This document shows positions 17,801-43,683 of a stretch of 64,000 nucleotides of DNA, one piece after another. Under the pieces are notes generated by a model. The model made no database searches. It had not been told where the DNA came from and saw only the letters and a program-made list of their open reading frames with translations. Each line of letters opens with the position of its first letter. Within the stretch, counting starts at the first letter, position 1. The stretch covers positions 22,926,822 through 22,990,821 of the forward strand of contig CAIIXF020000008.1 of NCBI GenBank assembly GCA_903813345.2, given 5' to 3'. Both the position numbers and the translations under genes were made by a program. Source of the DNA: Owenia fusiformis (lineage: Eukaryota; Annelida; Polychaeta; Sabellida; Oweniidae).

Positions 17801-20792
17801 ATGGGTCATATCATTCTATTGTGGTTTTTAATCTTAGTCGGTAGGGGATATGCAGCAAGTATTCATGATCTAAGCAACCTATTTGATTCACGAGGACGAG
17901 GTCAAGCGGCAGATATAGACAGCAGTAAGTAGTCTAGAAACATTCATCACATGATTGATCAGAGCTATGACAACTATGTTTTGCTTGGTGAAAACCAATT
18001 TAATATCTTATTTTATTTCCGAAGAAATTATGATACACTCAGAATTTGACATCGTTTGATGATCCTACTAAAGCAATTTAATTAAATAATATTAAAATGA
18101 TTAATAAAAAGTTCCATTTGTGTAAACAGAAGCGTTATTAGTAAATTTTGATACCGCCATTTTTGTTTGTCGATTTGGAATAATCAGAGGTGTATGTTAT
18201 CTCAATACATAAGCTTATGTCATCTTTGAACTCTGTGGTTAACCCCCCCCCCTGCTCCAGAGATTGAGACTGATCGATTCATACGGGCGCCCTAATGGCA
18301 CTCGTCGTAGTTGTAATTGTCAGTTGCTTCATGGTCCTGTACTATTGCAATATATCCATGTAATCTTTGGGATCTTTCTCAAGGCATACGGTCTATCATG
18401 CATTAAATAATTGGCATTTTTGTGTTTAGATCAATGTGATCCGTATCGGATGAAGTACATATATGATCATGATCAATCAGACTTTGAACAATCGGACTGT
18501 CATTACTACATGTGCAGCTCGTCCAGGATATACGAACGACAAAAATGCCCAGATGGCAAAGGTGTCAGTGACTTATTTAAGATCAAGTATGAGAACTATT
18601 CTCAGGGGCAAAGTTACGACCCTTGTACTAAGTATACCACAGCCTGTAAGAGAACATTGGCAGAAAAAGGACTGAGTAAGTAGAGGTTCAAGTTTTGTAT
18701 TCGTTGTTCCCTCTTCAAAAGAGGAAACGCGAAAGAGGTCAAAATATTTCCCACGATGCAGTACGCGGAGGAACAAATTCATACTTCCTTGTTTTCTCCC
18801 ATTAGTTTAACCGAGGTTGACGTCCTTGGTTTAACATGGGGATTTTCACACCTAATTTTCAATCGATATATTCGTTCAAATTCAATTTATATTCGAAATC
18901 ATGGTTATGTGCACATGACATATTGTATTACTTGTGAAATTGCAATATAAAAACACATCAATGTCCCTAGCCTGATTTCTGATATTCATAAATGCGATAT
19001 CCTGAAAGTGTTATTATTTAATTTGATGAACTCTTGGGGAATCCATGCGTTTCAACAAATGTAATGACAATCAATCAATCACGAAATCTTCAACAACCCA
19101 TCAAATCATTTATTTTCAGCCGAATTCGAAGTTCCCGTTTGCGGCCAGGACTTCGTGTTCATTGCTGATATTTCGTGCAGCATCTCCCCAACTGACAAAG
19201 AGAAGATTCGACGCTTCCTTATATCAGTTGTGAAAAGAATTCCAGTTAGGCCTCCTTTCTCACAAGTGGCAATATTACTCTACTCTGAAGTCACATACCA
19301 CATTGCATACCTAGACTCATATCGCCGATCAAAGGTAAGATTACACCTTTACGTTCCTGTTTCCCTCATATACACAGGGTACGTACCAACGAAAGCGTGA
19401 CAGTTAAATGTGCGGGGTACGGTACAGTGACAGCGAACTCGAATTTCATAGTTAAAACCTACACAACCTTAACTCCGAATATAGTATACGGTATAACGCG
19501 CGGATAAGATATACGGTATAACGCAAATTCCAATAACTTGTTGTGTTGTAACTTACCGTTACCGTGCGTCATACCGTATACTACATACCACTGGCGGATT
19601 AGGGGGGGGGGGGCCTGGGGGCCAAAAAAGGCCTTCAGACCTCAAAATTTTTGGTCATCACTAGGCCTTTTAAGGCCTTATTTTTTAATTTCAGGACTAA
19701 TTTTGAAGAAAATGGGCCGCCTCAAAATTTCAAAATTTGGGCCCACTTTTGGGTTTTAGGGGCCCAAAAATTTTTTCCACGCAAGCGCGGACGTTTTTTC
19801 TCTCACCTGAAATTTGCCCCCCCCCCACCTTGTTGGTGCCCAGATCCGCCCCTGCATACTACGGAGTTTGTGTAGGTTTTACTGTGAAATTAGCCGTCAA
19901 GTTCACTGTCTAGGATGTTGTTACAGACATTTCAAACTGCACAAACAATGGGATTATATTGTATTTTAATCTACTTAAAACAAGTAAAATCATTTGGGTC
20001 GACTTGACTAAGGGTTGAGTTGACCAAGGGTTGAGATGACTTGGACAATGCTTATAACATCATAAAGTGAATAATATACTAAAAAACTGCTTGTATATTA
20101 TATGGGTTTAGACCCCGGTTAATTATTCACTTAATATATACATTTAACCAGATAGCTCTTTTAATTTCAGCTAGTGAAAGTCTTGGAAAACATGGAATTG
20201 ATTCCAAAGACATGTGGTACAGCAACATTTTCTGCACTGAAAGAAGCCAGGGAGGTGTATTTCCAAGAGAAGAATGGACATCGTCCAAACAAAAAGGTAT
20301 GCTTTGACTTGTCATACGTTGACTTTTTATTATTTTGTATGGTGTTATTCGAGAAACACAAAAACATAGCGGTTTACAGGTGAAACAATAGATCACCGAA
20401 GGGACAGTACATAATAACTCCACTTATCCCTGTAAATTAACACATGTTAGTCAGGAGTGAACAATCAAGAAATTACATTGTAATTTTAGAAAATTGCGAT
20501 TCTAATCACTGATGGGAGGACGTTTCCAGGTAAAAGAAAACAAGAAACGCTTGATGAAGCCAAAAAGAACGACGAAGCCGGTATCATATCATATGTCGTA
20601 GCAGTGCCAAATCAAACGCAACAAGGGAAATTGGTAGGCTTTGATGAATGGGACGCCATCGCCACAGGAAATGCTGTCAAACCAGGTCCGGAAAATAGAA
20701 CCATTGATTCTAACGTATATGCTCTAGAATCCTTTGAAGAACTGCGGGAGACAATTAGTCAGATTGTTTATGATACATGTAAGAATATGTAA
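17801..20792 (+). CDS. Gene B: secreted six-Cys plus vWA protein
   Basis: Five exons: 17801-17924, 18430-18675, 19120-19334, 20171-20296 and 20490-20792, phases 1,1,0,0 after the first (all junctions GT/AG). They give 337 residues. Residues 1-20 form a hydrophobic signal peptide (MGHIILLWFLILV...). Residues about 42-123 are a six-Cys domain with C-x4-C (DCHYYMC) then KCPDG, resembling CBM14/peritrophin-A chitin-binding modules but with one residue fewer between Cys 2 and 3. Residues about 130-330 are a vWA domain. MIDAS residues are D140-x-S142-x-S144 (DISCS), T212 in CGTAT and D245 in LITDG, all present. The protein should be extracellular. No transmembrane segment or GPI-type tail is seen, as it ends ...YDTCKNM. 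Function beyond metal-dependent ligand binding, and possibly chitin binding, is inference. Exons 4-5 lie inside a rearranged repeat. Confidence 0.88.
19374..19942. mobile_element. Left part of a CAGGG...CCCTG foldback element
   Basis: In intron 3 of gene B. It begins ACACAGGGTACGTACCAACG and contains AAGCGTGACAGTTAA, ATACCGTATACTAC and GTCAAGTTCACTGTCTAGGA, all matching the intact copy at 59268-59766. It is interrupted by a MITE (19590-19856) and stops near 19935. The remaining right part appears at 23220-23392. Confidence 0.7.
19590..19856. mobile_element. MITE with GGGGCGGATC-type ends and poly-G/poly-C
   Basis: The left end is CTGGCGGATTAGGGGGGGG and the right end GCCCAGATCCGCCCCTG, which are inverted. 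The interior has GGCCTT/AAGGCC and TCAAAATTT words. CATAC sits at both borders, a possible short target duplication. A related partial copy begins at 60204 (CAGGGGCGGATCTGGGAACC). No coding potential. Confidence 0.7.
19932..20043. repeat. Inverted fragment of the foldback element at 21475
   Basis: This segment is the reverse complement of about 21606-21718 with no difference that I can see, including CAAACAATGGGATTATATTG and the GTCGACTTGACTAAGG units. It sits exactly at the break in the CAGGG foldback (19374-19942), in intron 3 of gene B about 130 bases before exon 4. Confidence 0.8.
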
Positions 20793-21466: not shown

Positions 21467-22556
21467 GTACTAGAGCTTCCTGGTCAACTCAACCCCAAGT
21501 CGACTCAACCCAAGTCAACTCAACCCTTAGTCAAGTCGACCCAAAGTCAAGTCGACCCTTAGTCAAGTCGACCCCAAGTCATCTCGACCCTTAGTCAACT
21601 CGACCCCAAGTCATCTCAACCCTTGGTCAACTCAACCCTTAGTCAAGTCGACCCAAATGATTTTACTTGTTTTAAGTAGATTAAAATACAATATAATCCC
21701 ATTGTTTGTGCAGTTTGATTTGAAATCAAACTTCAAAGAAAAAAACATTTCTACCACCTATAGATCAAAACGAAGATTTGAAATGGATCATAAAATCCCA
21801 ATCTGATTGTTTATGACACCTGACATGGGTACGATAATGGAAATTGTAAAATCATAAATCCCATTGTTTGTTCAGTCTTGTTTTAAAATCTAGATTAAAA
21901 AAAATAAACATTTCTATCGCCTATAGATCAGAAGGAAGATTTGAACTATATCATATTGTTTATTGTTTATTATTATTATCAAAATATAAAATCATTCAAT
22001 ACAAAGTAATGGATGGATAATGGCACAATGCACATGTTGCATAAGTTACCTGTTGTCAAAAATACTGTTGCAACAATTTCGGTATAACAGAAAAGTGTAT
22101 AGATAATTTTTTTATTTCAGAGAGATAAAACAAGCTCAAATATGAAGGGGTGAAATATATGTATAGCATCGTGAATAGCCCTATTAAGATTAATCAAATA
22201 TTATTTTGGTAAATAAATGTCATATTTATAAAAATTATAAATGCGTTAAGCACAAACTTCAATAGTTGATAATTTTATTTTGGAAAATTAGCATTTTAGT
22301 CCCTCATTCTTTCAAAATTCATCTATATCATACCATGAAAATAGTATATCTATTTGTTTTTTATGGTGGGGTCGAGTTGACTAAGGGTTGAGATGACCAA
22401 GGGTTGAGATGACTTGGGGTCGAGTTGACTAAGGGTCGAGATGACTTGGGGTCGACTTGACTAAGGGTCGACTTGACTTGGGGTCGACTTGACTAAGGGT
22501 TGAGCTGACTTGGGTTGAGTTGACTTGGGGTTGAGTTGACCAGTTACCGTACTAGA
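21467..22556. mobile_element. Foldback element with 16-bp tandem-unit ends, copy 1
   Basis: The element is 21475-22548 (1074 bp). Left end is GCTTCCTGGTCAACTC, right end GAGTTGACCAGTTACC. Each inverted end (about 21481-21660 and 22367-22542) consists of about a dozen 16-bp units such as GGTCGACTTGACTAAG. It is flanked by a perfect 8-bp direct repeat GTACTAGA at 21467-21474 and 22549-22556. The interior (21660-22366) is AT-rich, contains an imperfect internal duplication (ACCTATAGATCA blocks near 21755 and 21920) and has no long open frame. Structurally it resembles Drosophila Foldback elements, whose ends also carry short tandem repeats. The 8-bp duplication is typical of hAT-type transposases. 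It is non-autonomous. Confidence 0.85.
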
Positions 22557-22559
22557 AAC

Positions 22560-23215
22560 TGTGACAAATATGTTGATTTCATGGACATGCAATGTGTTAT
22601 TTTTTGTTGACCAGACTCTCAGCAATCATAACCACATAACCTGTTTGGAATATTGCTTATCTTTTTACAAAATATCACTTTAATGATGGATTTTTAGACA
22701 ATTAAGAAATATTTTATTTTTTTGGCAAATATAAACTCGGATTTCTTAACCTAAAATGTATCGATTGCGTTGATATTTTTGACCATGTCAATAAAATATA
22801 TGTGCTACCAACTCTTGAAAGTGGGATGTTTGATATTTCTTAGTCAGATTTGTAGAAAACTAAGACTTTACTTCATCATCTAGCTTAGACCCTTTTTATT
22901 GTGCTCGTACAGTACTAGGTTTTTATTTTATTAAGCAAAATGTGATGGTTAAAAATAGAAAATGGAATTTCATTGCTTCACAAAAAACGTTGTAGGAACG
23001 AACGTTTTGATAATGCAAATACAACATTTCAGGATGTCAAAATCCACCTCATTCTAAAAAAATGTGTCTAAATTCCATGGTGATCACTTACAGAATAAAA
23101 GAAGTTGTAAACTTCTAAAAAGTTCTCCTTATCAATCCTTCTCTTTTACATTTCTTCGTAAGAGGAGAAGAAATTGAAGTAATATTTGGGAGTTTAAACT
23201 TGCATGTAAAATCGA
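22560..23215. other. AT-rich spacer, nothing recognised
   Basis: No open frame, exon or clear repeat border was seen. The phrase GTCAATAAAATATATGTGCT near 22785 recurs near 23528, indicating an old local duplication. Confidence 0.35.
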
Positions 23216-23219
23216 AACA

Positions 23220-23392
23220 GTCAAGTTCACTGTCTAGGATGTTGTTATAGACATTTACATATGAAATTATCTAGAAACTAGATCAGATCTTTCTGCAACG
23301 ATGAAAACATCAGTTTGCTCAAATGTCATCACCCTCATGTTCTACCTACAGTGCGCGTTCACCCGTCAAGCTTAATTTGGTACACACCCTGT
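23220..23392. mobile_element. Right part of the CAGGG...CCCTG foldback element
   Basis: It starts GTCAAGTTCACTGTCTAGGA, repeating about 35 bases of the broken end at 19907, and ends GGTACACACCCTG. It matches the right arm of the intact copy at 59598-59766. Confidence 0.7.
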
Positions 23393-23399
23393 GATAATA

Positions 23400-24600
23400 T
23401 GACCCGGTCCATTCACTTTCAAAATTAAACTAATTGAAAGACGGATATAAAAGAGTGAAAATGAATAAACATTTTGCTTTTCAACATTACTATGTCACTG
23501 TGTATGTATGATGTTATAAAGTAAGCCATGTCAATAAAATATATGTGCTACCAATTTTACCTTACTGTAAAAGGGGTACTCTTAAAATGATTAATGGAGT
23601 CTAATATAAATATATCCTCCAAAACAGATGTATTAGAGAATTCATGATTATTAGACACCCTTTTCAGGAAAACCATATTAAATGAAGCCACAAACGTTGT
23701 CCTATAGTGAGGGCATCGGAGAAGAACTGTACATGTAAAATTGTATGAAAGTATCTTGCCCATTTCTTAAGTTATCGTTTTTGACATAGGGGTCGTTCAA
23801 AATAATTTGCGGCTAATAATTCCAAACGATAACGTTGACTCTATTTACATTTTAATTTTTGCAATTCATTACTAATATCCAAGGAAATGTGTTTAATGTT
23901 TGTTTGACACACTCAACTGTGATAAATAATAACTTATTTGAAATTAAACCACTTACCACGACAGACTTATTGAACGGTTAACGAAAATGTGTTGATTTTT
24001 TATTCCCTTGAAAATTGCTCAGGTTACGAAATGCCAATATAGTTCCAATGATGCCGCTTACGAATTTATAAAATATAATGTGTTTCCTCTACAATTCAAG
24101 AAAAATCATCGTCATATGAATATTTCAATTTTGTATTTTTTCAAATATCAATTATCGTAAATTGGCCCATATATCAGACGCTGGCACCATTTTGCTGGAA
24201 GGTGGAGATAAATAGCTTTTGACCATATATCATGTTAGCCTAGCCTGGTAGGTGTAAAAAATATAAGGTGTTTGGCTTTAAAGTGGTAAAAACAGTTTTC
24301 ATGGCCGAATTTGACCCAAATGTCTAAAATTTTAGGGGTACTATAATATAATTTCATAACATAAAGAATATATTTGCTATTGTTCTCTCATATATACAGG
24401 TTTTACTGTATATGATATAACTTGATACAAAAAGTTCATTATCTCAGGGTTCAGGTGTCATAAATGGATGTATTATGGCTTATAAGAAAGGTCTCTACGC
24501 AGTTAAACACTAACGGATATACTTCCATTGTTTATGACTGTTGTTATATATTTTATTGATATCATATCAAATAGGACCCAAATATTGTCTATATCTATAC
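23400..24600. other. Intergenic stretch, nothing recognised
   Basis: AT-rich sequence without recognisable exons or repeat borders. The 68-codon minus-strand frame at 23557-23763 has no features that would support a gene. Confidence 0.35.
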
Positions 24601-24602
24601 AT

Positions 24603-25545
24603 AAAAAACGCAACAAGTACTACATCAATTTTATTCAATGTTTCATAAAGCCACGCCCCCCCCCCTCTTTGCAATGATACGTCATTCATTCACATATAGT
24701 CATGGTTGGGTGAGAAATCCTTCCATTTGCACAGTGGGTCAAAATCGGCTCTGTACCAGGTTTCTGATATTGCAAAAATCAGAGCTAAGTGACATTGGAA
24801 GTTCTCTTGACTTGAATTGTTGTGACTTTTTCTTTTGGAGCTATCTCAGGAGCATTTGTGCTCACCATTCCTCCACCAGATATTGCAAAACTTCGAGAAA
24901 GAATTGCCAATAAGGTGCTTTTCTCCACCTTAACCCACAGATGACTCAGGGCATGACATGGAGAGGTGAGCACATCCTTATGTGTAAAGAAAAGGTGGCA
25001 ATTTGGAGGGCTGTGTGATGCATTCTTGCAAGTGTATGGGGTATTCATGAAAACTTGACTCTCTATGTCACACCTGCCACACCTTCTTCCAATAGCCCCT
25101 ATGCCCCATGCACTGACTTTTGCAATGTTTAAAACTTGGGTCTGAGCTGAATTGTGCCCCACTTTGCGAAATTAATGATTATTCGGTCAGTCATGACTCT
25201 CTGTGAATGAATGACATTCCATTGCGAAGAGGAGTAATTTGGCTTTTTGGTACATTGAATGAAAAGGATGCAGTCATCATTGGTTTTATGTTTTCTTCCA
25301 ATATTGCATTGGGCCCCGTACACTGACATTTGCGATGTTTATAAATTGGTCCCAAGCTAATTTTGGCCCACTTTGCAAAAGGAATGATTACTCACCCAAC
25401 CATGACCCAATATCAACGAATGATATACCATTGGAAAGAGGAGACACATGGCTTTATGGTACATAGAATGAAATCAATGCTGTTATCAGTGGTTTTATGC
25501 TTTTCCGAGATAACAATCTGTTGCGTTTTTTTATACGCACTGTAC
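24603..25545. mobile_element. Element with ATAAAAAACGCAAC inverted ends
   Basis: ATAAAAAACGCAACA at 24603 is matched by TGTTGCGTTTTTTTATACGC near 25521. Inside, a block of about 200 bp (CATTCATTCACA..AGTCATG.TTGG, GCAAAGTGGG.CA, GCATTG..CCC.GTACACTGAC) is repeated in direct and inverted order (for example near 25150-25340 and 25345-25530). Open frames here (24785-25162 minus, 25363-25632 plus) are repeats of that block and not judged to be genes. Confidence 0.65.
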
Positions 25546-25701
25546 AGTACATATCCCCTAAAATTTGTTTATTTCACATTTTCTAAACTCTCATCCACTG
25601 ATGTATGGACTCGTGTTAATTCTTATTTTTAACATAGGGAATCCTCACTTCAAACCGTAAAAAAGAATTTGCACGTCAACACTACTAAGTATAGGATAGA
25701 A

Positions 25702-25707
25702 TTTATT
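25702..25707 (-). promoter_or_regulatory. Candidate poly(A) signal of gene C
   Basis: AATAAA on the minus strand, about 90 bases after the gene C stop codon. Confidence 0.5.
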
Positions 25708-25796
25708 ACTAAGATTAGATTCTAATTATCTTTACACATTTCCAATTAATCCTCCAGAGATGTGTCTATTACCATGGCCAATAACTGATATTTGGA

Positions 25797-28700
25797 TTAC
25801 GCCAATCGACATGCACGTTTGATTATGCTGCTTATTTTAGTCTTCAAAATGTCATATGATTTCATAAAAAATATATTCTCGCCATTTTCCCCAGTGGATA
25901 TCTCCATCCATTCCTTCAAACTTGATAGTCCTTGTTGTGAAGTGACGGGAAGAGCGATAACAACTGATTTGATTCCAGCTTCATGGTTACGTCGAGCTTC
26001 TTGTATTGTGTCTTCATGCATTGCTGTTGGATTTGTCTCACCATCCGAGATCACTATCATGACATTCTGTAATGAGTATTTGATTATAATCATACATGTA
26101 TAATGTCTGATGTGATAATAGCTACAATAGTCCATTCGGGAGGAAATGGGATACAGCTGATGTGGTTACTTAAATATGCATTATGCCATAGGTTTCTCCC
26201 CCAGACAATCAATGATGTCCTATTATTATTGCTCATATAGTATCTCACATACCATGGATGTATCTTGAGAATAACTTTTGGGTATATTATTGCCGAAATA
26301 TCGGAAATAATCAAAAGAACAACCAAACTCCAGAATTAAACAATCGATTCATCGGCTATCGAGGGGAATCCCCATTGAGTCACACAAGCGCCCACAAGCG
26401 CCTTAAACCAGGGGGCCAATCAGGTTTATGATAAACAAATTCAACGACCAATCAGATAACAGGAGGACTTTCCCGGAACATTCAAACTTCAGATTGAATT
26501 AATTTCTTCGAAAATAATTAGAGCGGCCAGCACAATCGCAAAATTAACACTGAAAGAGGGGGATTTGGGACTTCTTCTTTGCTAAGTAGATGGGTATATA
26601 TGTGGTGAAACTCAATATGCAAAAAAGTCCAGAGGGGTCTTGATTGTACTATCCTATGGCATAGAGCCTCCTTAACATACCAACATTGGGTCTATAATAT
26701 TTTAAAATACCCAATAGAAAATTCTTTAAAATTAGCTACAGTTCATTCTATTGTGTTGCTAAGTGTGGTTTAATGATGTTTGATCCAGTTTTCATTTTGG
26801 GAAAATATTTCCTGTCATGACAGAAAAAATGAATGACCTCGAAAAATAATTTCTCCAAAATGATAAATATCCATGGTTCAGCTGTTTATGGCAACTGAAC
26901 CCATCCTAATATAAAGCTAAGACTATTTACTTGAAATGTATATCTTGAAATTTCCAATTTCACCCTCTTACTCTGGGAAAGTGACTTTAACTGTGGCAAC
27001 CCATGTCCCCCTCCAGACCAACCAACCAATGACAAGGATTATGTTCCATGATTCGTGATGAATAGGTTATATATTCAGATTATATTGGATAGTTAAACCA
27101 ATAGTATCACCCAAAACATTAAAAGAGTAAAGAGAGTTAAAGTTACATACTTAGATGACTTCACTCCATTTAAAAGAATAAAGAATAGAGTTCAATTTCC
27201 ATTATCTAATGATAATAAAATTTGACTGTATATATTTTATTTTTTCTGATATTGATTGTAAGGTTCTTGGTGATATATTTGATGTGAAATGATTGTGAAT
27301 GTGTATGCTGTGTAAAAATTTCTTAGATAACTTTTGAAAATAATCCAAGCGATTTGCTTTCAAAAACAGAATCAGTAAAGAAACATCAATACTAAAGGTT
27401 CCAAGTAATGAAAATGATGGTTCTTCAACAGGAGATATTTTTGGATATTCTGGCTTTTTATGAGTACTACTATATGATCTTTAGCTACCTTTAAATATAT
27501 GGTTTATGAGAACTAGATCTAGAGCTATTCATAAAATACCTGTTTATCCGGCCGGTCTCCATTTAACTCGGTAAATTGTTTTTCTCTGGCATTTTTAAGC
27601 GCCAACCATGTAGCTGTTCCACATTCACTGTCTTCCACATCAATGTTCATTTGTGACACAGTCCTTAACAACTGGAAAACAACTTAACTTATATATCTTA
27701 AATTCTTGATTATCGGACAAACTCAATATGCAATTCATAAAAGAAACATACCTATACATATACGTGGTGCATATTCCATAGACATGATAGAATAATCAAT
27801 ATATTTCAAAAATTCTAAATGTCTAAACTGTATTATATTTATATTATAAATGGCACGGATTATATGTTTATTTTGATTAAAGCATTTAGCTAACAAACGA
27901 TTAGAATAACTCAAAATTGCAATATTTTCCCTTTAAATTGAGTAAGTCCCTGTTACTGAGGATTTCTCAATATCATAGAACAGAAATGTTGACACAAATA
28001 CAGTAAACGTTGTGTTCACCATTTTAGAATAGTTGTAGTGAAATAATAGTTCTCCGTTGTAGAGGCCTCATTGTCTCTCTATTTACCAGATACGCTCTTC
28101 TGAAGTATTTTGAAAAGCTTCCTAGACTCACACTGGAATAGCCTGACAATGGTAACGTCAGATACCGTTGTCACAAATGGCGGACATAACCATCGCTTCA
28201 ATTAGATTTTCATATATGTTTAATAGAGCACCTAAACTAAATTCCTTTGGAACAACAATCAATCAAAGTGACTTTATACTCATTGTACAGTTAATTATGT
28301 TCTACCATCGAAATAAAGTCTTTAATTCAACCGATCAAAATGAGATATGGGGCAACAGACACTTTATTACCATATGCCGTTGCCTTTGTAAATTATTTCA
28401 AATTCCATTGTAATTGACGGTATCAAAGACGCTATATTGTGGCGATTCACGACCCAATTCGATCGAATTGGGATTTTATTTGTAAGTTTAATTAATTAAA
28501 CTTGATTAAAATTATGCAGCAACAGATCGTCTCAGATAGGGTCAGCCTCTAACATTAAACCTACAAAGCATTTGTCCGGGGGCTGGCCTTATCTGTGACA
28601 GATGTCATTCCCAGACACGTGTTCCGGTCTATGCTCCCTTCAGTTGCTTCTTAGCCTGCTAACTGGCTGTAATGATAAATGTTTGCTCGCTAATTTAAAT

Positions 28701-31700
28701 AGGATTTATTGAAATAGGAATAAAATAACAAAAATAAAAAAACAAATAAGAATAATAAAATAAAAGTGCAGAGTCAAAATGCCTCCTAAATCCAGGAAGA
28801 AAGATTGTGAGATTGGAGAAGACATTCTTGTGCTATTTTGCAATAATATTGGACTATCATCAAATGCAGTTAAAACTCTGAGGAGTGAATGTTTTAACTC
28901 GAAGGGGGCCTTAGACTCAATGGACCTTGACGCTATCATGAGTCTAAACTTGCGTGCTGGGGACATATGTATTTTGAAAAAGCACCTAGCATCAACAAAA
29001 GTCCAACCTTCCGTAAATTAGGATGTATCGCCCATGAATGAAATACCCATTTCAAAACTGTTACAAGGACCACCCGGTACACCTATGCCTCAAATAGGAC
29101 AATCACCAGATAGCAGCGTGACGAGTACCGCCGTACATGGGGCAGCCGCATCAATCTCCCCACTGGTTTAGCTGACGCCTGTTCAGGATAAAGCAGTAGG
29201 TGAGCTAAAAATAATTGATTTTATTGATAAATCAATAGAGATAAATAGCGACCAGGAGCTATCGATTTCAAAAAGAGGAGATCAAAATATTCTCGTGTCA
29301 AAATCCTCGAAGAGAGAAGATAAGATATCACCCTTTGAATGGGCTGTCGCAAATGCAAAGATAATGGCAAAACTGGAGCAGTCTGAAAAGCTTGCTACAC
29401 AGGGTGTCCTGGAATACCAAGCATATACTGTTAAGATATTTCAACATACCATTGCGTATGAATGGCAAGGTGTCCTGGCCCTCGACAGAGAATACCGCAA
29501 AGCACAACATATACATGGCTTCCCATGGGGAGCAGATCTCAGTCACTTGGATATAAAGCACCTTAAAAGGAAGCAAACCATGTATGCAAATAAGCCCCCA
29601 ACACAATCTGTATCTGTGCAAAAATCGCAAGTTTTCCCATACCCCTGCAAGGATTACAATAGCGAGGTAGGGTGCTCACGCACTACATGTAAATTTGCAC
29701 ACATCTGCGCAGATTGTAAAGGTAAACACCCTAAAGTTAAACACCCCTCATCAGTAAAAGCATCCCAGGAAAACTAATAAGCCCCTCTGCATTATCGCCA
29801 TCAGGATATTTAAAGTATGACTTCAGGAATATTGAATTATCATCTGATCATGACAAAGAATTCTTATTAAGAGGAATTAAAAATGAATTTAAAATTATAG
29901 ACTCAAGCAATACAAAACCGACCCCAGCTGCATGGCCCAACCATAAATCTGCCGTTACTGTAATCAATCACTTAAAAGTGGAACAACAAATCAAACATGA
30001 ACTAGCAGAAAATCGATATGTTATAGTTGACAAAAAAACAGTTATTATAAGTCCTTTATGTGCAATTGAAAAACCAAACTCTGATTCTATTCGCTTAATC
30101 CATGACTGTAGCTTACCTCCAGGCCAGGGGATAAATGCTTATGCAACAAAAGACATATGTAATTATGAAAAACTCCAGGATGCAGTAAGTCTTATAACAC
30201 CAGGGTGCTATATGGGAAAATTGATTTGAGTGAAGCATATCGCTCAGTTGGAATTCATCCAATGGATTATCCTTATGCTGGACAAAAATGCAAATTTTCT
30301 GGAAATATGAATGAAACATATATGATTGACACTCGTTTGATGTTTGGTTCAAGGAAAGCCCCCTCTATTTTTAATAGACTCACCAAGACAGTAAAACGAA
30401 TGATGCATCGCAAAGGATACCATAACACTATTGTTTATCTGGATGACTTTCTTGTGGTATATGAAACATTTGAACAAGTTCAAGAAGCAATGACAGTTCT
30501 CATCCAGTTATTGCGTAACTTAGGTTTTGCAATAAGTTGGAAAAAAGTTATTGGACCTGTACAAAAAATCATTTTCCTTGGGGTCCAGCTATCATCATGC
30601 AGTATGTCTATGGAATTGCCTAAGGAAAAACTAGTGGACTTAAAACAAACATTGCTTATGTATCGCACTCGGCGTCGTGCCTCTCTAAAACAATTGCATT
30701 CACTCGCAGGGAAGCTCAATTGGGCGTCCCAGCTTGTAAGAGGAGGTAGAACTTACCTTCGTCGTATCTTACAAACTATGACTACACTTCGCAAAACTTC
30801 GCATAAGGTAAAACTGGACTATCATTTTTACCAGGACTTAGAATGGTGGATATAGTGCCTAGATACTTTTAATGGGAAGGCTCTATCTTGGAGTCACTTC
30901 CCATAACAGATGTGCACATGGATGCCTGTGGAGTAGGAGCAGGAGTTTATCACCAAGATGACTGGTGTTATACAAATTGGTCATCAGACTGGCCTGCAGC
31001 ATCCTCTCTACATATAAACTATCTTGAGGTTATCACGTTTCTGATTGCTGTCAGGAGGTGGGGTCAGTTATGGACTAACAAGATGGTAATTATTCACACA
31101 GACTCTAAAGTAGCCATGTATCTGTTAAACAAGGGAACATCAAAGGACAATTTAGTGATATCTGTGCTGCGTGAACTCTTCTGGTTGTCTGTTATGTACA
31201 ACTTTGATGTGAAAGCTATTCACATTCCAGGACACCTTAATTGCATCCCTGATGCAATATCCAGACTGCACCAGGCTCACCAATTATCACGCTTAGACTG
31301 CCTCTTGTCTGAGGGACTTTATCCATTTTGTGGCTTGACCCCCCATAGTATCGTATATCATATGACTAAAACATCACTGCATTCTATTATTCCGCAGGTG
31401 GTCAAGTGGTGGAAATGGAAAAGCAATTGGATGAAGCTGTCTCTCGGTTCACAGACATGGCCTTTGCATCAAGTACCAAACGTACCTACAGCACCCATCG
31501 TAAATCTTACCTAGATTTTTGCAGAACAATGAGATATACACCTGTACCCGCATCAACGTCTACATTATGTCACTATGCTGCATATTTAGCAGAAACATTA
31601 AAAGCTAATTCTGTGAAACAATACTTGAACATTATCACAATCTTACATAAAGAACATTCTCTGGACAGTCATGTGTGGTCTAATTGGCATTTATACATCA

Positions 31701-34015
31701 TCACAAGAGCTTGATACATGCACAGAATTAGCGACGATAAAATCCCATGAAATGAGGACCAAGTGATTAAAGAGTTGAAGCGATGGTTGTGTCCGCCGTT
31801 TGTAACAAAGGTATTCGACTTGACCTTATTCCATATAAATGAAAAATATATGGCACCATGGGTATTGGTAGGGCTATGGGGCTAGAATACATGTAAATGT
31901 ATTGCCAGAGTCACTCAATTTCTTGATTTAAGTAATTCCATTTAGATAAACTTAAAACACCATTGGAATGTAACTATATGATCTTATTGACATGTGGATT
32001 GTGATTTTACATTTAAATTGTGATTCTTGTAAGAGTAAATGAGCTTTTAAAAGTTTTTCAGCATTATGTCAATGGGGATTTAGCCCGACCTCTTCTAGAC
32101 AACTAGAAAATCATTAGAATTCGAATAAAGGCAAACAACAGTGCAAATCAAATTTGTTTTGATAGAAAATTACACAGGGAGTTCAAATATGCCATCAAAT
32201 GGAAGAAAAGTTTGGTCCTTACTGGTTAAAATGCAGATCTAAAATCTCATTAAAAACGAGACTTTAACAAGATTTCAAAGCTATATGGAAAAGGACCAAT
32301 GGTCAGTAGAGCACCTAGACTGGATTCCTTTGGAACAATCAATCAATCAATCAAAGTTTCTTAATACTCATTGTACAGTTAATAATGTTCTGCCATCGAA
32401 ATAAAGTCTTTAATTTAACCGATCAAAATGAGATACGGGACAACGGACACTGTAATTACCATTTGCTGTTGTCTTTCTAAATTACTGAAATTCAGATTCC
32501 GTTGTCATTGACGATATCGAAGACGCTATATTGTGGCGATTCACGACCCGATTTGATCGAAAATGGGATTTCATATGATACATCTAAATGAGGACCAAGT
32601 GATTAAAGAGTTGAAGCGACGGTTGTGTCCGCCGTTTGTGACAACGGTATCTGACTTTACCGTTGTCAGGCTAGGTGCTCTATTAAACGTACACTTCATG
32701 AAAATCTAATTGAAGCGACGGTACGGTTATGCCCGCCATTTGTGAGAACGGTATCTAACTTCACCGTTGTCATGCTATTCCATGGTGTGCATGGGGGATT
32801 TATTTTGTCAGCATTTAATAAAAATAATTGTGCGAAATTCTTGATATTTCTTTGTAAAATGTCATGCTCCGACACTTTACACCTAGTGATATTCCCACCC
32901 CGTGATTATATCTTCTGTCGACTTCAATGAATGTCCAGAGGAAGGTTGGTCTTACCTTGCCTTTGCTGGTGAAGGACTTGAGATGAAGCACATTGTGGAC
33001 ACGCTTTGTATAGCTTAGGAGTCCAACTTGAGTGAATTTAGGTCCCAATGTCAGCATTGCAATTGCATGTTTAATAAAGAACTTTATCTTTTCTTTGTTT
33101 TCAGCTGCGATACTACATGAAACATGAACTGCAAAGACCAAATCTATTGGGCACATCTTAGCACCGTTATGTCCTGCAATTACAACGAGACCAATATTGG
33201 TTACATACGACATGGGCTTTCAAAAGACAAGTACATGCATACGAGGATTATGGCTACTGTTTGAACATTTGAAAACATTGAAAATCAAAAAGATGACACC
33301 GCAATGAAAACCACACGGGCACCTATAAAATGGGGAAGAGTCGATGCATACATTACATCTGAGATGTGATATAACATGTTTTACCTAATCCCTTTTGAGA
33401 CATGGTTAATGAACACTTATCACCGGGTCTACTAATCACTGTACATGGATAGTTCGTCTGTCCTTCAGACCATTCCCATTTGTCTCTAAAGTGTTGGCTG
33501 GTCCTTCTCCCATTTGGACATTGCTTTCTTACGTATAACTTGTTCACGCATTCATAGAAATGACAGGGATCGATGGGTTCATCGTCTTTACCGTAGATGT
33601 ACCTGTCAAAACGGGTACTACACTCGGCTAGAATAGATGGCGATACATTTATTTTATTTTGCATCTTAATCTAACATTGGTAAGTTACAGGCAGCCTATG
33701 TTATGATTGATACAATAGTTAGCTTTTAATATGATACTTTGGTTAACATATTTAATTAAAATAGTAATCTAAGTAAAAGTTTATTTTCGTGATACTTTAA
33801 GTAATGATAAAATCATTTGACGGAGAATGTTTAAAACGTTGCATACGTTTTATTTTTGTTATATCTCGGCGACCGTAATTTGAAAGTACAGATCGTCTGT
33901 AAAATCTTCCTCCAAACAAACTCGCCAAATATTTTTGAGGGTTGAACGGCCTAGATGATACTTGGAGAAAAGTACAGCATACAGCCACAATAGCACTAAT
34001 CCAAGACAGATGCAT
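25797..34015 (-). CDS. Gene C: secreted six-Cys plus vWA protein, MIDAS altered
   Basis: Five exons on the minus strand: 34015-33847, 33627-33385, 33173-32956, 27671-27540 and 26066-25797, giving 343 residues. Exon 1 encodes a signal peptide (MHLSWISAIVAVCCTFLQVSS). Its donor (GTATGC) is the least certain; an alternative lies upstream. Exon 2 is the six-Cys domain (PCHFYEC, QCPNG) at residues about 57-137. Exons 3-5 form the vWA domain. T229 (CGTATW) and D262 (VISDGE) are present, but the first MIDAS Asp is His154 in VHVSCS, while genes B and D have DISCS there. The open frame is otherwise intact with good splice sites, so the protein may have lost metal-dependent binding or gained another role. 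Alternatively it is an early pseudogene. Intron 3 is about 5.3 kb because it holds a DIRS-like retroelement. Confidence 0.85.
26067..27539. other. Intron 4 of gene C, nothing recognised
   Basis: Donor GT at 27538-27539 (minus) and acceptor ending at 26067. The interior is AT-rich with no element border I can support. Confidence 0.5.
28779..29021 (+). pseudogene. Gag-like 5' fragment of the retroelement
   Basis: An 80-codon frame starting MPPKSRKKDCEIGEDILVLF, lysine-rich at the start. The stop at 29019-29021 separates it from the next gag-like frame, which probably belonged to one protein. I do not recognise a domain. Its assignment rests on position before the zinc-finger frame. Confidence 0.5.
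29295..29777 (+). pseudogene. Gag-like frame with Cys/His zinc motif
   Basis: 160 codons. The C-terminal part has PCKDYNSEVGCSRTTCKFAH, a C-x8-C-x4-C-x3-H finger, followed by ICADCKGKHP..KH. The middle has a FPWGADLSHLD segment. Nucleic-acid-binding gag proteins of tyrosine-recombinase retroelements have similar Cys/His clusters. The frame is intact here, but the upstream part is separated by stops. Confidence 0.6.
29800..30855 (+). pseudogene. Reverse transcriptase of the retroelement, frameshifted
   Basis: The fingers/palm start lies in one frame (29978-30229, ...LCAIEKPNSDSIRLIHDCSL..GQGIN) and continues in the next frame from about 30205 (YGKIDLSEAYRSVGIHP). The break is a one-base shift near 30210-30225. 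The catalytic palm motif reads VYLDDFLV (about 30430-30460), preceded by LMFGSRKAPSIFNRLTK and followed by FLGVQLSS and LAGKLNWASQ. These are standard landmarks of DIRS/gypsy-like reverse transcriptases. A stop at 30853-30855 separates it from RNase H. Confidence 0.85.
30888..31340 (+). pseudogene. RNase H domain of the retroelement
   Basis: The acidic set of an RNase H is visible: DACGVGAG, YLEVITFL, IIHTDSKVAM and PDAISRL, with the HIPGHLNC segment before the last one. It is in a different frame from the reverse transcriptase end (a stop plus one shift around 30853-30905). It is fused downstream by overlap with the recombinase frame. Confidence 0.85.
31406..31714 (+). pseudogene. Tyrosine recombinase, core-binding part only
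   Basis: 102 codons with FTDMAFASSTKRTYSTHRKS and TPVPASTSTLCHYAAYLAET. This is the typical SAM-like N-terminal DNA-binding domain of tyrosine recombinases. The frame ends at a stop near 31714, and repeat B1 begins at about 31746. The catalytic domain with its Arg-His-Arg-Tyr set is therefore absent, probably deleted between 31680 and 31746. Confidence 0.75.
32956..33173 (-). CDS. Gene C exon 3: MIDAS half of vWA with D-to-H change
   Basis: Acceptor ATTGCAG ends at 33174; donor GTAAGAC starts at 32955. It encodes CPIDLVFAVHVSCSI..., where the paralogues have FIADISCS and FAVDISCS. The exon is 218 nt, the same length as gene D's and one codon longer than gene B's, with no frame damage. Confidence 0.85.
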
Positions 34016-34768
34016 CTTTATCTAAAATACGATTATATTTATGTACATACATGTATATCTTGTAAAACTCCGGCATGCGAAACATCCTAAGTAATCATAA
34101 ATATTTGATATAGGTCTACGCGGTATTTTTCTTTTAATACAACGGTTAATTGACACTAATTGTTGTATGATATGATACGTATACTGTATAAGTTTAAATA
34201 ATTGGAATAAACTTAACCTTGAAAAGTTATGCTTGTGGTATATCTTGCATACACGAAGAGCTATTGTGTTGACGTTAAATTGCAAATATGGTAGGAATTG
34301 ACAAAATTTTAATAACTTCCTCCTGTTAAAGCAGCGCTGTTTTAAATAGATTATATTGGTAGATTTAATATCACTGAACATAGTATTGCTTGTTGAGTAT
34401 CACACAACATTACCGTTTATCATTTATTTTGGATTACATAGGGGTCATTTTTAAAATATTTTTTCTTTGTATTTAAAGATTTCTTTTAAATAGATAGTAA
34501 ATGAGTAAAAATATCATCAACTCTTTGACATAGAGAACATTTATGCAATTTCAACTGAAAAATAAGATCAAAATTGACGTCACATTCACAGTGGGTGGTA
34601 TAACTTATTTAACACTGTTTATTTTTTTTTATTTTTTGTTCCAGTCTAACAATTTAAATTAGTCTATATTAGTTATAATTACATCATTGACTATTTCTAA
34701 ATTTGTTGAGAAACATACAGCATAACACATTTTTATTAATTTGAGATTTCAGCAGAGATCTAATTTAC

Positions 34769-35824
34769 GGTAACTGGTCAACTCGTACCCAAGACAACTC
34801 GTACCCAAGTCAAGACGTACCCAAGACAACTCGTACCCAAGACAACTCGTACCCAAGACAACTCGTACCCAAGACAACTTGTACCCAAGTATATGTTTGT
34901 TTTGAATCAAGTGTTGGGCTAAGAATGGGTATAGATATTAAAATGGTTACATACAGTTCAGAATAGTTTGAAGTATGTAGAAGAGTTTTTGGAAGAAATC
35001 GATTGAATATATTGGTCACGGATTCAGATGTTCGAGGGAAGAGATTTATGTTTATTCCACATATTCATAATCATTGTTCACAATATTAGTGGTATTTTTG
35101 TATGTTAATGAGTGTTTGGAACAAGTATCAGATCTAATTCATTTTGAAATATGGTATTATCAAAAATATAAAGATTTTCAAAACTTGCGCCTATTTCTTA
35201 TTAAACAGATAATCTATTTAGGATTTCATATTATCAGATTAAAGAATGATAATTCTAAGAAGTCACCTTCATAAAATTAAGCAATATAAAATATTCTAAA
35301 TAATATTAATATCAAATATTATTTTGATACTTATTCATACATGATATAATACACTTTGCATGCATGTGTTCAAATATAATCCAATTAAGTTCAAAATGGA
35401 AAAGAAATTAACAGATTAAAGTTCCCTTATTAATTTTCTCTGAATGCACTAAGCTAAATTAATTATTTGATTCATTTGTTGAAAAGTTGCTGTTGTAATT
35501 ATATTCATTTGTATATATATATGTATTACAAAAAAAGTTGAGAACAAGCCCTTCAAAGCACTTCAAAGGTAATCCAAGTTAAAACAAAATGCTTTGCTTA
35601 ATCCATTGAGAAAAAATGTCTTCTAAATTCAGAAAAAATATTGAGGCACATTATAACATTAAACATTTTGACACAGACTCAATTTGTTTTCTTATATGCA
35701 CCCATAATACAGAAAATAAACATGGGTACGAGTTGTCTTGGGTACCAGTTGACTTGGGTACGAGTTGTCTTGGGTACAAGTTGTCTTGGGTACGAGTTTT
35801 TTGGGTACGAGTTGACTAGGAAGC
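34769..35824. mobile_element. Foldback element with 16-bp tandem-unit ends, copy 2
   Basis: 1056 bp, in the opposite orientation to the copy at 21475. The left end GGTAACTGGTCAACTC equals the reverse complement of copy 1's right end. The right end GAGTTGACTAGGAAGC matches the reverse complement of copy 1's left end. Inverted ends (34775-34890 and 35723-35820) contain 16-bp units ACCCAAGACAACTCGT. A perfect 8-bp direct repeat TAATTTAC flanks it (34761-34768 and 35825-35832). Short frames inside the arms (34810-35019 minus; 35616-35819 plus) are repeat translations. The interior is AT-rich and non-coding. Confidence 0.88.
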
Positions 35825-35832
35825 TAATTTAC

Positions 35833-38385: not shown

Positions 38386-38389
38386 CAAC

Positions 38390-41300
38390 ATTTCAAGTTG
38401 GAACAATATAAAACAGTACCAATGAATCACCATTCAATAGACTAGATGCAAGTAGAAATAACATTTGAAGTTGGAACAAAATAAGACAGTACCAATGAAT
38501 CACCATTCAATAGACTAGATGCAAGTAGAAATAACATTTGAAGTTGGAACAATAGAAGACAATACCAATGAATCACCATTCAATAGACTGATGCAAGTAG
38601 AAATAACATTTGAAGTTAGAACAATATGAGACAGTACCAATGAATCACCATTCAATAGACTAGATGCAAGTAGAAATAACATTTCAAGTTGGAACAATAT
38701 GAGACAGTACCAATGAATCACAATTCAATAGACTAGATGCAAGTAGAAATAACATTTGAAGTTGGAACAATATGAGACAGTATCAATGAATCACCATTCA
38801 ATTGACAAGATGCAAGCAGAAATAACATTTGAAATTGGAACAATATAAGACAGTACCAATCAATCACCATTCAAAGGACTAGATGCAAGTAGAAATAGCA
38901 TTTGAAGTTGGAACAATATGAGACAGTACCAATGAATCACCATTCAATAGACTAGATGCAAGTAGAAATAACATTTGAAGTTGGAACAATATAAGACAGT
39001 ACCAATGAATCACCATTCAATACACTAGATGCAAGTTGAAATAACATTTGAAGTTGGAACAATATGAGACAGTACCAATGAATCACCACTCAACAGACTA
39101 GATGCAAGTTGAAATAACATTTGAAGTTGGAACAATATGAGACAGTACAAATGAATCACCATTCAATTGACTAGATACAAATAAAAATAATATTTGAAAT
39201 TGGAACAATATGAGACAGTACCAAAGAATCACCATTCAATAGACTGATGCAAGTAGAAATAACATTTGAAGTTGGAACAATATGAGACAGTACAAATGAA
39301 TCACCATTCAATTGACTAGATACAAACAGAAATAACATTTGAAATTGGAACAATATGAGACAGTACCAATGAATTATCATTCAATAGACAAGGTGCAAAT
39401 AGAAATAACATTTGAAATTGGAACAATATGAGACAGTTCCATTGAATCACCATTCAATAGACTAGGTGCAAATAGAAATAACATTTGAAATTGGAACAAT
39501 ATGAGACAGTACAAATGAATCACCATTCAATAGACTAGGTGCAAATAGAAATAACATTTGAAATTGGAACAATATGAGACAGTACCAATGAATCACCATT
39601 CAATAGACTAGGTGCAAATAGAAATGACATTTGAAATTGGAACAATATGAGACAGTTCCATTGAATCACCTTTCAATAGACTGATGCAAGTAGAAATAAC
39701 ATTTGAAGTTGGAACAATATGAGACAGTACCAATGAATCACCATTCAATTGACAAGATACAAGTTGAAATAACATTTGAAGTTAGAACAATATGAGACAG
39801 TACCAATGAATCACCATTCAATTGACAAGATACAAGTAGAAATAACATTTGAAGTTGGAATAATATGAGACAGTTCCAATGAATCACCATTCAATAGACT
39901 AGGTGCAAATAGAAATAACATTTGAAGTTAGAACAATATGAGACAGTACCAATGAATCACCATTCAATTGACAAGATACAAGTAGAAATAACATTTGAAG
40001 TTTGAACAATATGAGACAGTACCAATGAATCACCATTCAATAGACTAGGTGCAAATAGAAATAACATTTGAAATTGGAACAATATGAGACAGTACCAAAG
40101 AATCACCATTCAATTGACTAGATACAAGTAGAAATAACATTTGAAGTTGGAACAATATGAGACAGGACCAATAGATCACCATTCAATAGACTGATGCAAG
40201 TAGAAATAACATTTGAAATTGGTATAAGATAGTACCAATAAATCACCATTCAATAGACTGATGAAAGTAGGAATAACATTTGAAATTGGAACAATATAAG
40301 ACAGTACCAATGAATCACCATTCAATAGACTAGATGCAAGTAGAAATAATATTTAAAGTTGGAACAATATGGAACAGTAACAATGAATCACCATTCAATA
40401 GACTGATGCAAGTAGGAATAACATTTGAAATTGGAACAATATAAGACAGTACCAATCAATCACCATTCAAAGGACTAGATACACGTTGAAATAACATTTG
40501 AAGTTGGAACAATATGAGACAGGACCAATGAATCACCATTCAATAGACTGATGCAAGTAGAAATAACATTTGAAGTTGGAACAATATGAGACAGTATCAA
40601 TGAATCACCATTCAATTGACAAGATGCAAGCAGAAATAACATTTGAAATTGGAACAATATAAGACAGTACCAATCAATCACCATTCAAAGGACTAGATGC
40701 AAGTAGAAATAACATTTGAAGTTGGAACAATATGAGACAGTACCAATGAATCACCATTCAATAGACTAGATGCAAGTAGAAATAACATTTGAAGTTGGAA
40801 CAATATACGACAGTACCAATGAATCACCATTCAATAGACTAGATGCAAGTTGAAATAACATTTGAAGTTGGAACAATATGAGACAGTACCAATGAATCAC
40901 CACTCAACAGACTAGATGCAAGTTGAAATAACATTTGAAGTTGGAACAATATGAGACAGTACAAATGAATCACCATTCAATTGACTAGATACAAATAAAA
41001 ATAATATTTGAAATTGGAACAATATGAGACAGTACCAAAGAATCACCATTCAATAGACTGATGCAAGTAGAAATAACATTTGAAGTTGGAACAATATGAG
41101 ACAGTACAAATGAATCACCATTCAATTGACTAGATACAAACAGAAATAACATTTGAAATTGGAACAATATGAGACAGTACCAATGAATCATCATTCAATA
41201 GACAAGGTGCAAATAGAAATAACATTTGAAATTGGAACAATATGAGACAGTTCCATTGAATCACCATTCAATAGACTAGGTGCAAATAGAAACAACATTT

Positions 41301-42250
41301 GAAGTTGGAACAATATGAGACAGTATCACTGAATCACCATTCAATAGACTAGATGCAAGTAGAAAGAACATTTGAAGTTGGAACAATATGAGACAGTACC
41401 AATGAATCACCATTCAATAGACTAGGTGCAAATAGAAATGACATTTGAAATTGGAACAATATGAGACAGTTCCATTGAATCACCTTTAAATAGACTGATG
41501 CAAGTAGAAATAACATTTGAAGTTGGAACAATATGAGACAGTACCAATGAATCACCATTCAATTGACAAGATACAAGTTGAAATAACATTCGAAGTTAGA
41601 ACAATATGAGACAGTACCAATGAATCACCATTCAATTGACAAGATACAAGTAGAAATAACATTTGAAGTTGGAATAATATGAGACAGTTCCAATGAATCA
41701 CCATTCAATAGACTAGGTGCAAATAGAAATAACATTTGAAGTTAGAACAATATGAGACAGTACCAATGAATCACCATTCAATTGACAAGATACAAGTAGA
41801 AATAACATTTGAAGTTTGAACAATATGAGACAGTACCAATGAATCAGCATTCAATAGACTAGGTGCAAATAGAAATAACATTTGAAATTGGAACAATATG
41901 AGACAGGTTCCAATGAATCACCATTCAATAGACTAGGTGCAAGTAGAAATAACATTTGAAGTTGGAACAATATAAGACAGTATCAATGAATAGACTAGAT
42001 GCAAGTAGAAATTAAATAACATTTGAAATTGGAACAATATGAGACAGTTCCAATGAATCACCATTCAATAGACTAGGTGCAAGTAGAAATAACATTTGAA
42101 GTTGGAACAATATAAGACAGTATCAATGAATAGACTAGATGCAAGTAGAAATTAAATAACATTTGAAATTGGAACAATATGAGACAGTACCAATGAATCA
42201 CGTACCATTCAATAGACTAGATGCAAGTAGAAATAACATTTAAAATTGGA
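38390..42250. repeat. 73-bp satellite, about 52 copies
   Basis: The unit contains GATGCAAGTAGAAATAACAT, TTGAAGTTGGAACAATATGA and CAGTACCAATGAATCACCAT. Variants (AAATTGG/AAGTTGG, AGGTGCAAATAG, AGATACAAGTAG) are shuffled along the array. A longer period is superimposed: AATCACCACTCAACAGACTA at 39081 recurs at 40895, and TTGAATCACC at 39661 recurs at 41475, both 1814 bases apart. The minus-strand 69-residue frames in it are repeat translations. Confidence 0.92.
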
Positions 42251-42654
42251 ACAACATTTGGTGAAAGTATTGAGTTCATGCTCAAAATAAATTTTGAAAA
42301 TATGCAATTACTGTATCGATTTACGGTAATCAAGTCGGTATCAGGACTCTGTTGTCTAATAAGGTCTAATACACTCCAAAGAATTTCAATAATATTTCAT
42401 TTAATTTGTATGGTACTCTTGGCAGAAATATCTGCAACCTATTGTAACATTAATATGTGCAATCTTGCTCAATTGTCTTTTTTTCACTTTTAATATTTAT
42501 TGTAATTGTACTGCTTCTCAACCTGAATTAAAAACGTATTTAAAAACTATGGAATTAATGGCATTGCTCTGTTCATTTGGGTAATTTATGTGACACTACC
42601 ATTCACAATGCATTTGCATATTAGGATTAGGGTTCTTGTAGAACTAAACATCAA

Positions 42655-43524: not shown

Positions 43525-43530
43525 TTTATT
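43525..43530 (-). promoter_or_regulatory. Candidate poly(A) signal of gene D
   Basis: AATAAA on the minus strand about 155 bases after the stop at 43684. The duplicate last exon has the same signal at 42496-42501. Confidence 0.45.
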
Positions 43531-43683
43531 GTAATTGTACTGCTTCTCAACCTGAATTAAAAACGTATTTAAAAACTATGGAATTAATGGCATTGCTCTG
43601 TTCATTTGGGTAATTTATGTGACACTACCATTCACAATGCATTTGCATATTAGGATTAGGGTTCTTGTAGAACTAAACATCAA

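What the first reader, a model, noticed from the sequence alone, without database searches (positions are those of the whole stretch)
21467..35832. Foldback family with 16-bp tandem-unit ends and 8-bp target duplications
Two elements of almost equal size (21475-22548, 1074 bp; 34769-35824, 1056 bp) lie in opposite orientation. They share asymmetric termini (GCTTCCTGGTCAACTC at one end, GGTAACTGGTCAACTC at the other). Each has a perfect 8-bp duplication of a different target (GTACTAGA, TAATTTAC). Their inverted ends are arrays of a 16-bp unit, but the unit differs: GGTCGACTTGACTAAG in copy 1, GGTACGAGTTGTCTTG in copy 2. The termini stay constant while the tandem unit has been replaced wholesale. 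Drosophila Foldback elements have tandem-repeat ends, and 8-bp duplications fit hAT-like transposases. I do not know a described family with these termini.
Basis: partly seen in the sequence, partly recalled or inferred. Interest (0 to 1): 0.8.

Follow-up and report, generated by a model that had tools for sequence, protein, structure and literature searches.

The report
Mutator-like foldback transposon family, two copies
Two copies of a small 'jumping gene' that seems to lack its own enzyme sit in this stretch of DNA; their ends are built from repeated 16-base units, a design already described for Mutator-like elements in a mosquito and in nematodes.

Summary
Two ~1.07-kb elements, 21475-22548 (E1) and 34769-35824 (E2, opposite orientation), each have a perfect 8-bp target duplication (GTACTAGA, TAATTTAC), shared end caps (GCTTCCT at one end, GGTAACT at the other) and inverted arrays of a 16-bp unit. 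The central claim that the unit was "replaced wholesale" is wrong. Aligned in register from the tips, the units are homologous, with consensus units matching at 13 of 16 positions. The AT-rich middles show no significant similarity. The plan of short cap + tandem 12-16-bp subterminal units + 8-9-bp duplication is described for Mutator-like elements: Muta1 and Muta5 of Aedes aegypti (PMC5225508) and Tm1 of Meloidogyne, which also has asymmetric 7-bp tips (PMC3169594). Best reading: a non-autonomous family of Mutator/Foldback type, moved in trans, with the units as transposase-binding sites. Superfamily and binding are inferred: no transposase was found and no genome is held. Mildly interesting: E1's two 11-unit arms match rank by rank (96% against 81% off-rank), yet the end-specific tips stay different. 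A 113-nt perfect inverted copy of part of E1 lies 1.6 kb away.

The parts
21467..21474 (.). E1 target-site duplication, left copy (GTACTAGA)
21475..22548 (+). Element E1, 1074 bp, oriented GCTTCC end to GGTAAC end
21475..21482 (+). E1 GCTTCCTG cap
21483..21657 (+). E1 left array, 11 units (one of 15 bp, ten of 16 bp)
21658..22365 (+). E1 AT-rich middle (26% GC), with an internal 99-bp direct repeat (83%); the only ORF of 75+ aa overlapping E1 (21531-21803) has no Pfam match
22366..22540 (-). E1 right array, 11 units, rank-matched to the left array
22541..22548 (-). E1 GGTAACTG cap (reads on - strand)
22549..22556 (.). E1 target-site duplication, right copy (GTACTAGA)
34761..34768 (.). E2 target-site duplication, left copy (TAATTTAC)
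34769..35824 (-). Element E2, 1056 bp, inverted relative to E1
34769..34776 (+). E2 GGTAACTG cap
34777..34888 (+). E2 array next to the GGTAAC cap, 7 units
35722..35816 (-). E2 array next to the GCTTCC cap, 6 units (second unit 15 bp)
35817..35824 (-). E2 GCTTCCTA cap (reads on - strand)
35825..35832 (.). E2 target-site duplication, right copy (TAATTTAC)
19932..20044 (-). 113-nt perfect inverted copy of E1 21606-21718 (the three innermost left-array units, five bases of the next, and the start of the middle); no target duplication of 5 bp or more found near its edges

Best explanation
E1 and E2 are two non-autonomous members of one Mutator/Foldback-type (possibly Phantom-like) DNA transposon family. 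A transposase made elsewhere binds the repeated 16-bp subterminal units, recognises or cuts at the 7-8-bp caps, and inserts the element at staggered 8-bp cuts, which become the duplications. The two caps are different (GCTTCCT and GGTAACT) and each is conserved at its own end. The unit arrays grow, shrink and diverge, and an arm can be copied onto the opposite arm, while the middle is passenger DNA. Shown: anatomy, duplications, unit homology, rank-matched arms of E1. Inferred: superfamily, trans-mobilisation, binding role of the units, arm copying.
For: Perfect 8-bp duplications at fixed ends. Caps agree at the same end in both elements: first 16 bases identical for the GGTAAC ends, 15 of 16 for the GCTTCC ends. 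Units homologous in register. Published Mutator-like elements have the same plan: Muta1 (10-bp terminal motif, nine 12-bp tandem repeats with 3-4-bp spacers, 8 or 9-bp duplications, over 300 derivatives, most with variable internal sequence and often truncated ends with variable repeat number) and Muta5 (8-bp terminal motif, nine 15-bp repeats) (PMC5225508, passages); Tm1 (asymmetric 7-bp tips outside the inverted repeat, mostly 14-bp tandem unit, 8-10-bp duplications in 45 of 53 elements with both tips) (PMC3169594, passages and part 1 of 2 of the Discussion). [quoted passage not shown] MULEs are reported in all mollusc genomes of one survey (PMC10294476, passages), relevant only if the host is a mollusc, which was not tested.
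Against: No transposase domain of a cut-and-paste element in the 80 of 95 stop-to-stop ORFs of 75+ aa that were scanned (counts checked); 15 were not scanned. Only two full copies are available. Other superfamilies also make 8-bp duplications, while Tm1 mostly makes 9-bp ones. The paper on Galileo says that whether the tandem repeats of Foldback and Phantom elements act as binding sites is untested. The host ranges that PMC6446971 lists for Phantom do not include molluscs; it lists a separate MULE-Mollusca group without TIR or duplication data, which counts against the Phantom label if the host is a mollusc. No sequence homology to Muta or Tm1 was shown.
Confidence: 0.7

Rival explanations
1. 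A non-autonomous foldback element mobilised by a transposase of another superfamily with ~8-bp duplications (hAT, P/Galileo-like, Merlin, KDZ/Zisupton; duplication sizes of the last two recalled).
For: 8-bp duplications. Galileo, a P-superfamily element, has foldback-like ends with tandem repeats and binding sites. hAT is among the richest superfamilies of bivalves, if the host is one.
Against: Tips lack the CAGRG start of hAT and the CA start of P (both recalled). Galileo copies are flanked by 7-bp sequences. The short-cap plus 12-16-bp tandem-unit plan is documented for MULEs.
Confidence: 0.25
2. Two unrelated inverted-repeat elements that share ends by chance or convergence, with unrelated tandem units.
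For: Unit identity between E1 and E2 is only 0.66 on average over 242 pairs, and the middles show no significant similarity (16 of 300 resampled sequences score as high).
Against: First 16 bases identical at one end and 15 of 16 at the other. Units match best in the register set by the tips: 0.67 against at most 0.55 for the other 31 rotation/strand choices.
Confidence: 0.03
3. Local inverted duplication of a minisatellite rather than a transposon.
For: Arrays are tandem repeats and an inverted fragment lies nearby.
Against: Two separate sites 12 kb apart with the same caps, each with its own exact 8-bp duplication.
Confidence: 0.02

Closest known systems
Muta1 / Muta5 (Mutator-like elements, Aedes aegypti; PMC5225508, passages seen)
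   Same: 10-bp or 8-bp terminal motif, nine 12- or 15-bp subterminal tandem repeats (Muta1: 15-16 bp with its spacers), 8 or 9-bp duplications, hundreds of derivatives; Muta1 is called a type 2 Foldback.
Tm1 (Mutator/Foldback, Meloidogyne; PMC3169594, passages and part 1 of 2 of the Discussion seen)
   Same: Asymmetric 7-bp motifs outside the inverted repeat, usually one kind per end; arrays of a short unit; 8-10-bp duplications; MITE-like copies; mean identity between the two inverted repeats of one element 93%.
   Different: Cap and unit sequences differ (CGGTTAA, CCTACCC; mostly 14-bp unit); mostly 9-bp duplications; extra motifs B and D.
Galileo (P superfamily, Drosophila; PMC3688188 and PMC3573991, passages seen)
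   Same: Long ends with internal tandem repeats, some holding transposase-binding sites; changes of repeat number; copying of one TIR from another proposed.
   Different: Repeat units of ~210 bp in D. mojavensis subfamily F, 7-bp duplications, transposase known; its two TIRs can differ in repeat number.
Tetris (foldback, Drosophila virilis; PMC4079207, passages seen)
   Same: Apparently non-autonomous foldback with tandem repeats in its ends, 8-10-bp duplications; its authors suggest Mutator from the duplication size and earlier assignments of foldbacks.
   Different: Repeat named TIR-220, not a 16-bp unit; also forms satellite-like arrays.
Tandem repeat-containing MITEs of the clam Donax trunculus (Satovic and Plohl 2013; only the reference entry seen, paper not held)
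   Same: Title suggests non-autonomous elements with tandem repeats in a bivalve.
   Different: Not compared; whether the repeats lie in the ends is unknown to me.
TU elements (sea urchin; recalled, no text seen; 'TU elements' occurs 0 times in the one paper listed)
   Same: Recalled: foldback with ~15-bp tandem outer repeats and 8-bp duplications.
   Different: Not compared at sequence level.

Membership tests
Mutator/Foldback (MULE, Phantom-like) | MULE transposase encoded by an autonomous member | not testable with these tools
   No genome held for the window; no transposase domain in 80 of 95 ORFs of the window.
Mutator/Foldback (MULE, Phantom-like) | 8-11-bp target duplication | tested here: met
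   8 bp in both elements; range for MULEs from PMC6446971 (passages). Consistent, not diagnostic.
Mutator/Foldback (MULE, Phantom-like) | Long ends made of short subterminal tandem repeats | tested here: met
   Arrays of 175/175 bp (E1) and 95/112 bp (E2), units of 16 bp (three of the 35 units are 15 bp). In Ae. aegypti 10 of 12 long-TIR MULE families have 9-15-bp subterminal repeats. Some MULEs have simple TIRs or none, so this is typical, not required.
Tm1-like architecture | Different 7-bp motif at each end, outside the inverted repeat | tested here: met
   E1 arm mismatches at tip positions 2, 4, 5 and E2 tip mismatches at 2, 4, 5, 8; same-end tips agree between E1 and E2 except position 8 of the GCTTCC cap.
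Tm1 family proper | Tm1 caps and 14-bp unit sequence | tested here: not met
   By eye, caps GCTTCCT/GGTAACT and units differ from the consensus printed in PMC3169594.
hAT | CAGRG-type terminal inverted repeat (recalled) | tested here: not met
   Ends are GCTTCC and GGTAAC.
hAT | 8-bp target duplication | tested here: met
P superfamily / Galileo | 7-bp duplication (Galileo) | tested here: not met
   Duplications are 8 bp; the 7-bp figure is.
P superfamily / Galileo | THAP-domain transposase in an autonomous member | not testable with these tools
   No genome held; no THAP match in 80 of 95 ORFs.

The most novel reading that the evidence does not exclude
The two ends are functionally distinct and not interchangeable: arms are homogenised as whole 11-unit blocks by copying one arm onto the other, but the copying stops short of, or is selected against at, three end-specific bases of the tips (in E1, 3 of 5 tip positions differ against 5 of 175 in the arm body, P about 2e-4 under the body rate; the 5-base tip was chosen after seeing the data). 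That would mean a transpososome that needs one end of each kind while treating the array as exchangeable filler.
Probability: 0.25. Interest if true: 0.4.

Novelty: new member of a known kind. Interest (0 to 1): 0.22.

Why it matters
It adds what looks like another family to the Mutator/Foldback design and gives a small natural test of what is fixed (end-specific tips, unit register and period) and what is free (several unit positions, unit number, middle). It does not open a new class of element.

Tried and rejected
Own-genome search: none held. Related DNA: the 16-mer GGTAACTGGTCAACTC hit 6 stretches of viral contigs. In the DNA held for each of the 6 there is one GTCAACTC and no array unit at one mismatch or fewer, so all 6 are judged chance (L005 is only part of its contig). 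A two-unit pattern covering both unit types gave 0 hits in viral contigs and 0 in genome contigs. Neither collection is eukaryotic, so this says little. Rfam at gathering scores: 0 matches; tRNA: 0. A weak 29-bp similarity between the middles is not significant: 16 of 300 resampled middles score as high. Single-strand folding of two short array pieces: z -1.79 and +1.23, nothing notable. Other inverted-arm pairs: one search found 99 and listed the 25 longest. I checked 7 places for duplications: 1 gave an 8-bp candidate (19 and 26 bp outside the arm ends), 1 a 6-bp one, 5 none; none was shown to belong to this family. Literature: nine searches. No title or abstract opening in those listings describes a foldback family in molluscs. 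The listing was capped at 20 of 56, and most subscription papers are not held. The host was not identified.

Full report
Observation. The window is 34% GC with no N; no whole genome is held for it, and its host was not identified. E1 is 21475-22548 (1074 bp) between copies of GTACTAGA. E2 is 34769-35824 (1056 bp) between copies of TAATTTAC, in the opposite orientation. At fixed boundaries the 8-bp identity is unlikely by chance: identical 8-mers at the same separations occur at 3 of 62909 and 4 of 62927 positions, the true sites included. Sliding the boundaries by up to 15 bases each way finds no other solution for E1, and only a one-base shift for E2.

Anatomy. Read from each tip, every arm is a cap of 8 bases followed at once by the array: E1 GCTTCCTG + 11 units and GGTAACTG + 11 units; E2 GCTTCCTA + 6 units and GGTAACTG + 7 units. 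Same-end tips agree between E1 and E2 over the first 16 bases except position 8 of the GCTTCC cap. The stated terminus TGGTCAACTC is thus the last two cap bases plus the start of unit 1.

The units are one family. E1 consensus GTCAACTCGACCCCAA and E2 consensus GACAACTCGTACCCAA match at 13 of 16 positions in the register set by the tips. Of 20000 shuffles of the E2 unit, 21 reach 13 or more when given the best of all rotations and both strands. Over the 242 unit pairs of equal length the mean identity is 0.66; 300 column shuffles (16-bp units only) have a mean of 0.29 and a maximum of 0.526. Among the 32 rotation/strand choices tested with the seven GGTAAC-arm units of E2, the in-register one scores 0.67 and the next 0.55. 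So the unit has diverged and was not replaced wholesale. The middles (708 and 833 bp, both 26% GC) show no significant similarity: 16 of 300 resampled sequences score as high.

Arm evolution. In E1, units of equal rank in the two arms are 96% identical (11 pairs) but units of different rank only 81% (90 pairs); 0 of 20000 rank permutations reach the observed value. Both arms also share a 15-bp second unit. In E2 equal-rank (5 pairs) and different-rank (30 pairs) identity are both 91%, and 14064 of 20000 permutations reach the observed value. So E1's arms look like copies of one another as whole blocks, while E2 shows no rank signal and more uniform units. Despite this, E1's arms differ at tip positions 2, 4 and 5 and at only 5 of 175 positions in the body (P about 2e-4 under the body rate; the 5-base tip was chosen after seeing the data). 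E2's tips differ at the same three positions and at position 8. This suggests end-specific tips, but from two copies only.

Truncated copy. 19932-20044 is a 100% inverted copy of E1 21606-21718: the three innermost left-array units, five bases of the next, and the first part of the middle. No duplication of 5 bp or more was found within about a dozen bases of its edges. It fits a templated repair insertion, or a remnant of a near-identical copy; the data do not decide.

Coding. Of 95 stop-to-stop ORFs of 75 aa or more in the window, 80 were scanned against Pfam (E up to 0.01, up to 0.1). The 15 left out are four in the 69-bp satellite at 1165-2601, six at 7.2-10.4 kb (largely simple repeats) and five at 61.4-63.7 kb. 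VWA matched seven ORFs, three above the curated cut-off and four below. One ORF matched a reverse transcriptase above the cut-off; RNase H, an integrase-type SAM-like domain, DUF835, DUF6693, DB, PLA2_inh and Ig_TgrO1 matches were all below theirs. No transposase of a cut-and-paste element was found. Three ORFs overlap E1 or E2: two had no match, one a sub-threshold DUF6693 match.

Comparison with known elements. In Aedes aegypti all 14 MULE families have 8-9-bp duplications, and 10 of the 12 with TIRs over 100 bp carry subterminal tandem repeats of 9-15 bp. Muta1 has a 10-bp terminal motif and nine 12-bp repeats with 3-4-bp spacers, moves in yeast, and has over 300 derivatives. Muta5 has an 8-bp terminal motif and nine 15-bp repeats but did not move in yeast (PMC5225508, passages). 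Tm1 has asymmetric 7-bp tips outside the inverted repeat, a mostly 14-bp tandem unit and 8-10-bp duplications, with a Phantom-like MULE transposase in Tm1-A (PMC3169594, passages and part 1 of 2 of the Discussion). Muta elements fall with Phantom in one phylogeny, which lists no molluscan Phantom but a separate MULE-Mollusca group (PMC6446971, passages). In Galileo, tandem repeats in such ends hold sites bound by the transposase's THAP domain, though the same paper calls this untested for Foldback and Phantom; copying of one TIR from another is proposed (PMC3688188 and PMC3573991, passages). The present elements match the MULE/foldback plan in cap, array and duplication; the transposase cannot be tested here.

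Verdict. A real family of a known kind; whether it is already catalogued could not be tested. The hAT assignment is disfavoured, the 'wholesale replacement' comes from comparing unit variants out of register, and the most interesting residue is the contrast between matched arms and fixed, end-specific tips.

Noticed in passing
19932-20044 and 21606-21718: 113-nt perfect inverted copy of part of E1, 1561 nt from its source, without a target duplication of 5 bp or more near its edges; looks like a templated insertion or a remnant.
   Followed up: partly
21467-21474, 34761-34768: Oriented by the element, both target sites read GTA next to the GGTAAC end (GTACTAGA, GTAAATTA); two sites only, may be chance.
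   Followed up: no
29172-31711: Retroelement remnant: reverse transcriptase (RVT_1, E 6e-17), with RNase H and integrase-type SAM-like matches below cut-off; order suggests a DIRS/Ngaro-type tyrosine-recombinase element (type recalled).
   Followed up: partly
18411-20789, 25800-26165, 32818-33670, 42658-44088, 54046-56285: Exons with VWA-domain matches (three above, four below the Pfam cut-off); similar-looking ORFs at 2726-3013, 18411-18680, 33356-33670 and 55989-56285 had no match. Looks like a family of VWA-domain genes on both strands.
   Followed up: partly
45122-46247: Inverted pair, 213-nt arms 98% complementary, and the outer flanks also look complementary by eye, so the arms extend further; no duplication found.
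   Followed up: partly
49062-50503: Inverted pair, 103-nt arms 89% complementary, with a possible 8-bp duplication ACATGAAT 19 and 26 bp outside the arm ends.
   Followed up: partly
38387-42254: Long array of a 73-bp satellite unit, about 53 copies.
   Followed up: no
1259-2429: Array of a 69-bp unit, 17 copies at 96% match; the period is a multiple of three and long ORFs run through it in two frames.
   Followed up: no
7225-7476, 8647-8895, 10126-10370: Three places where a 19-bp tandem unit (AGCCGAGTCATCCAGAATA-like) precedes a TAGGA-type simple array; looks like a repeated composite element.
   Followed up: no
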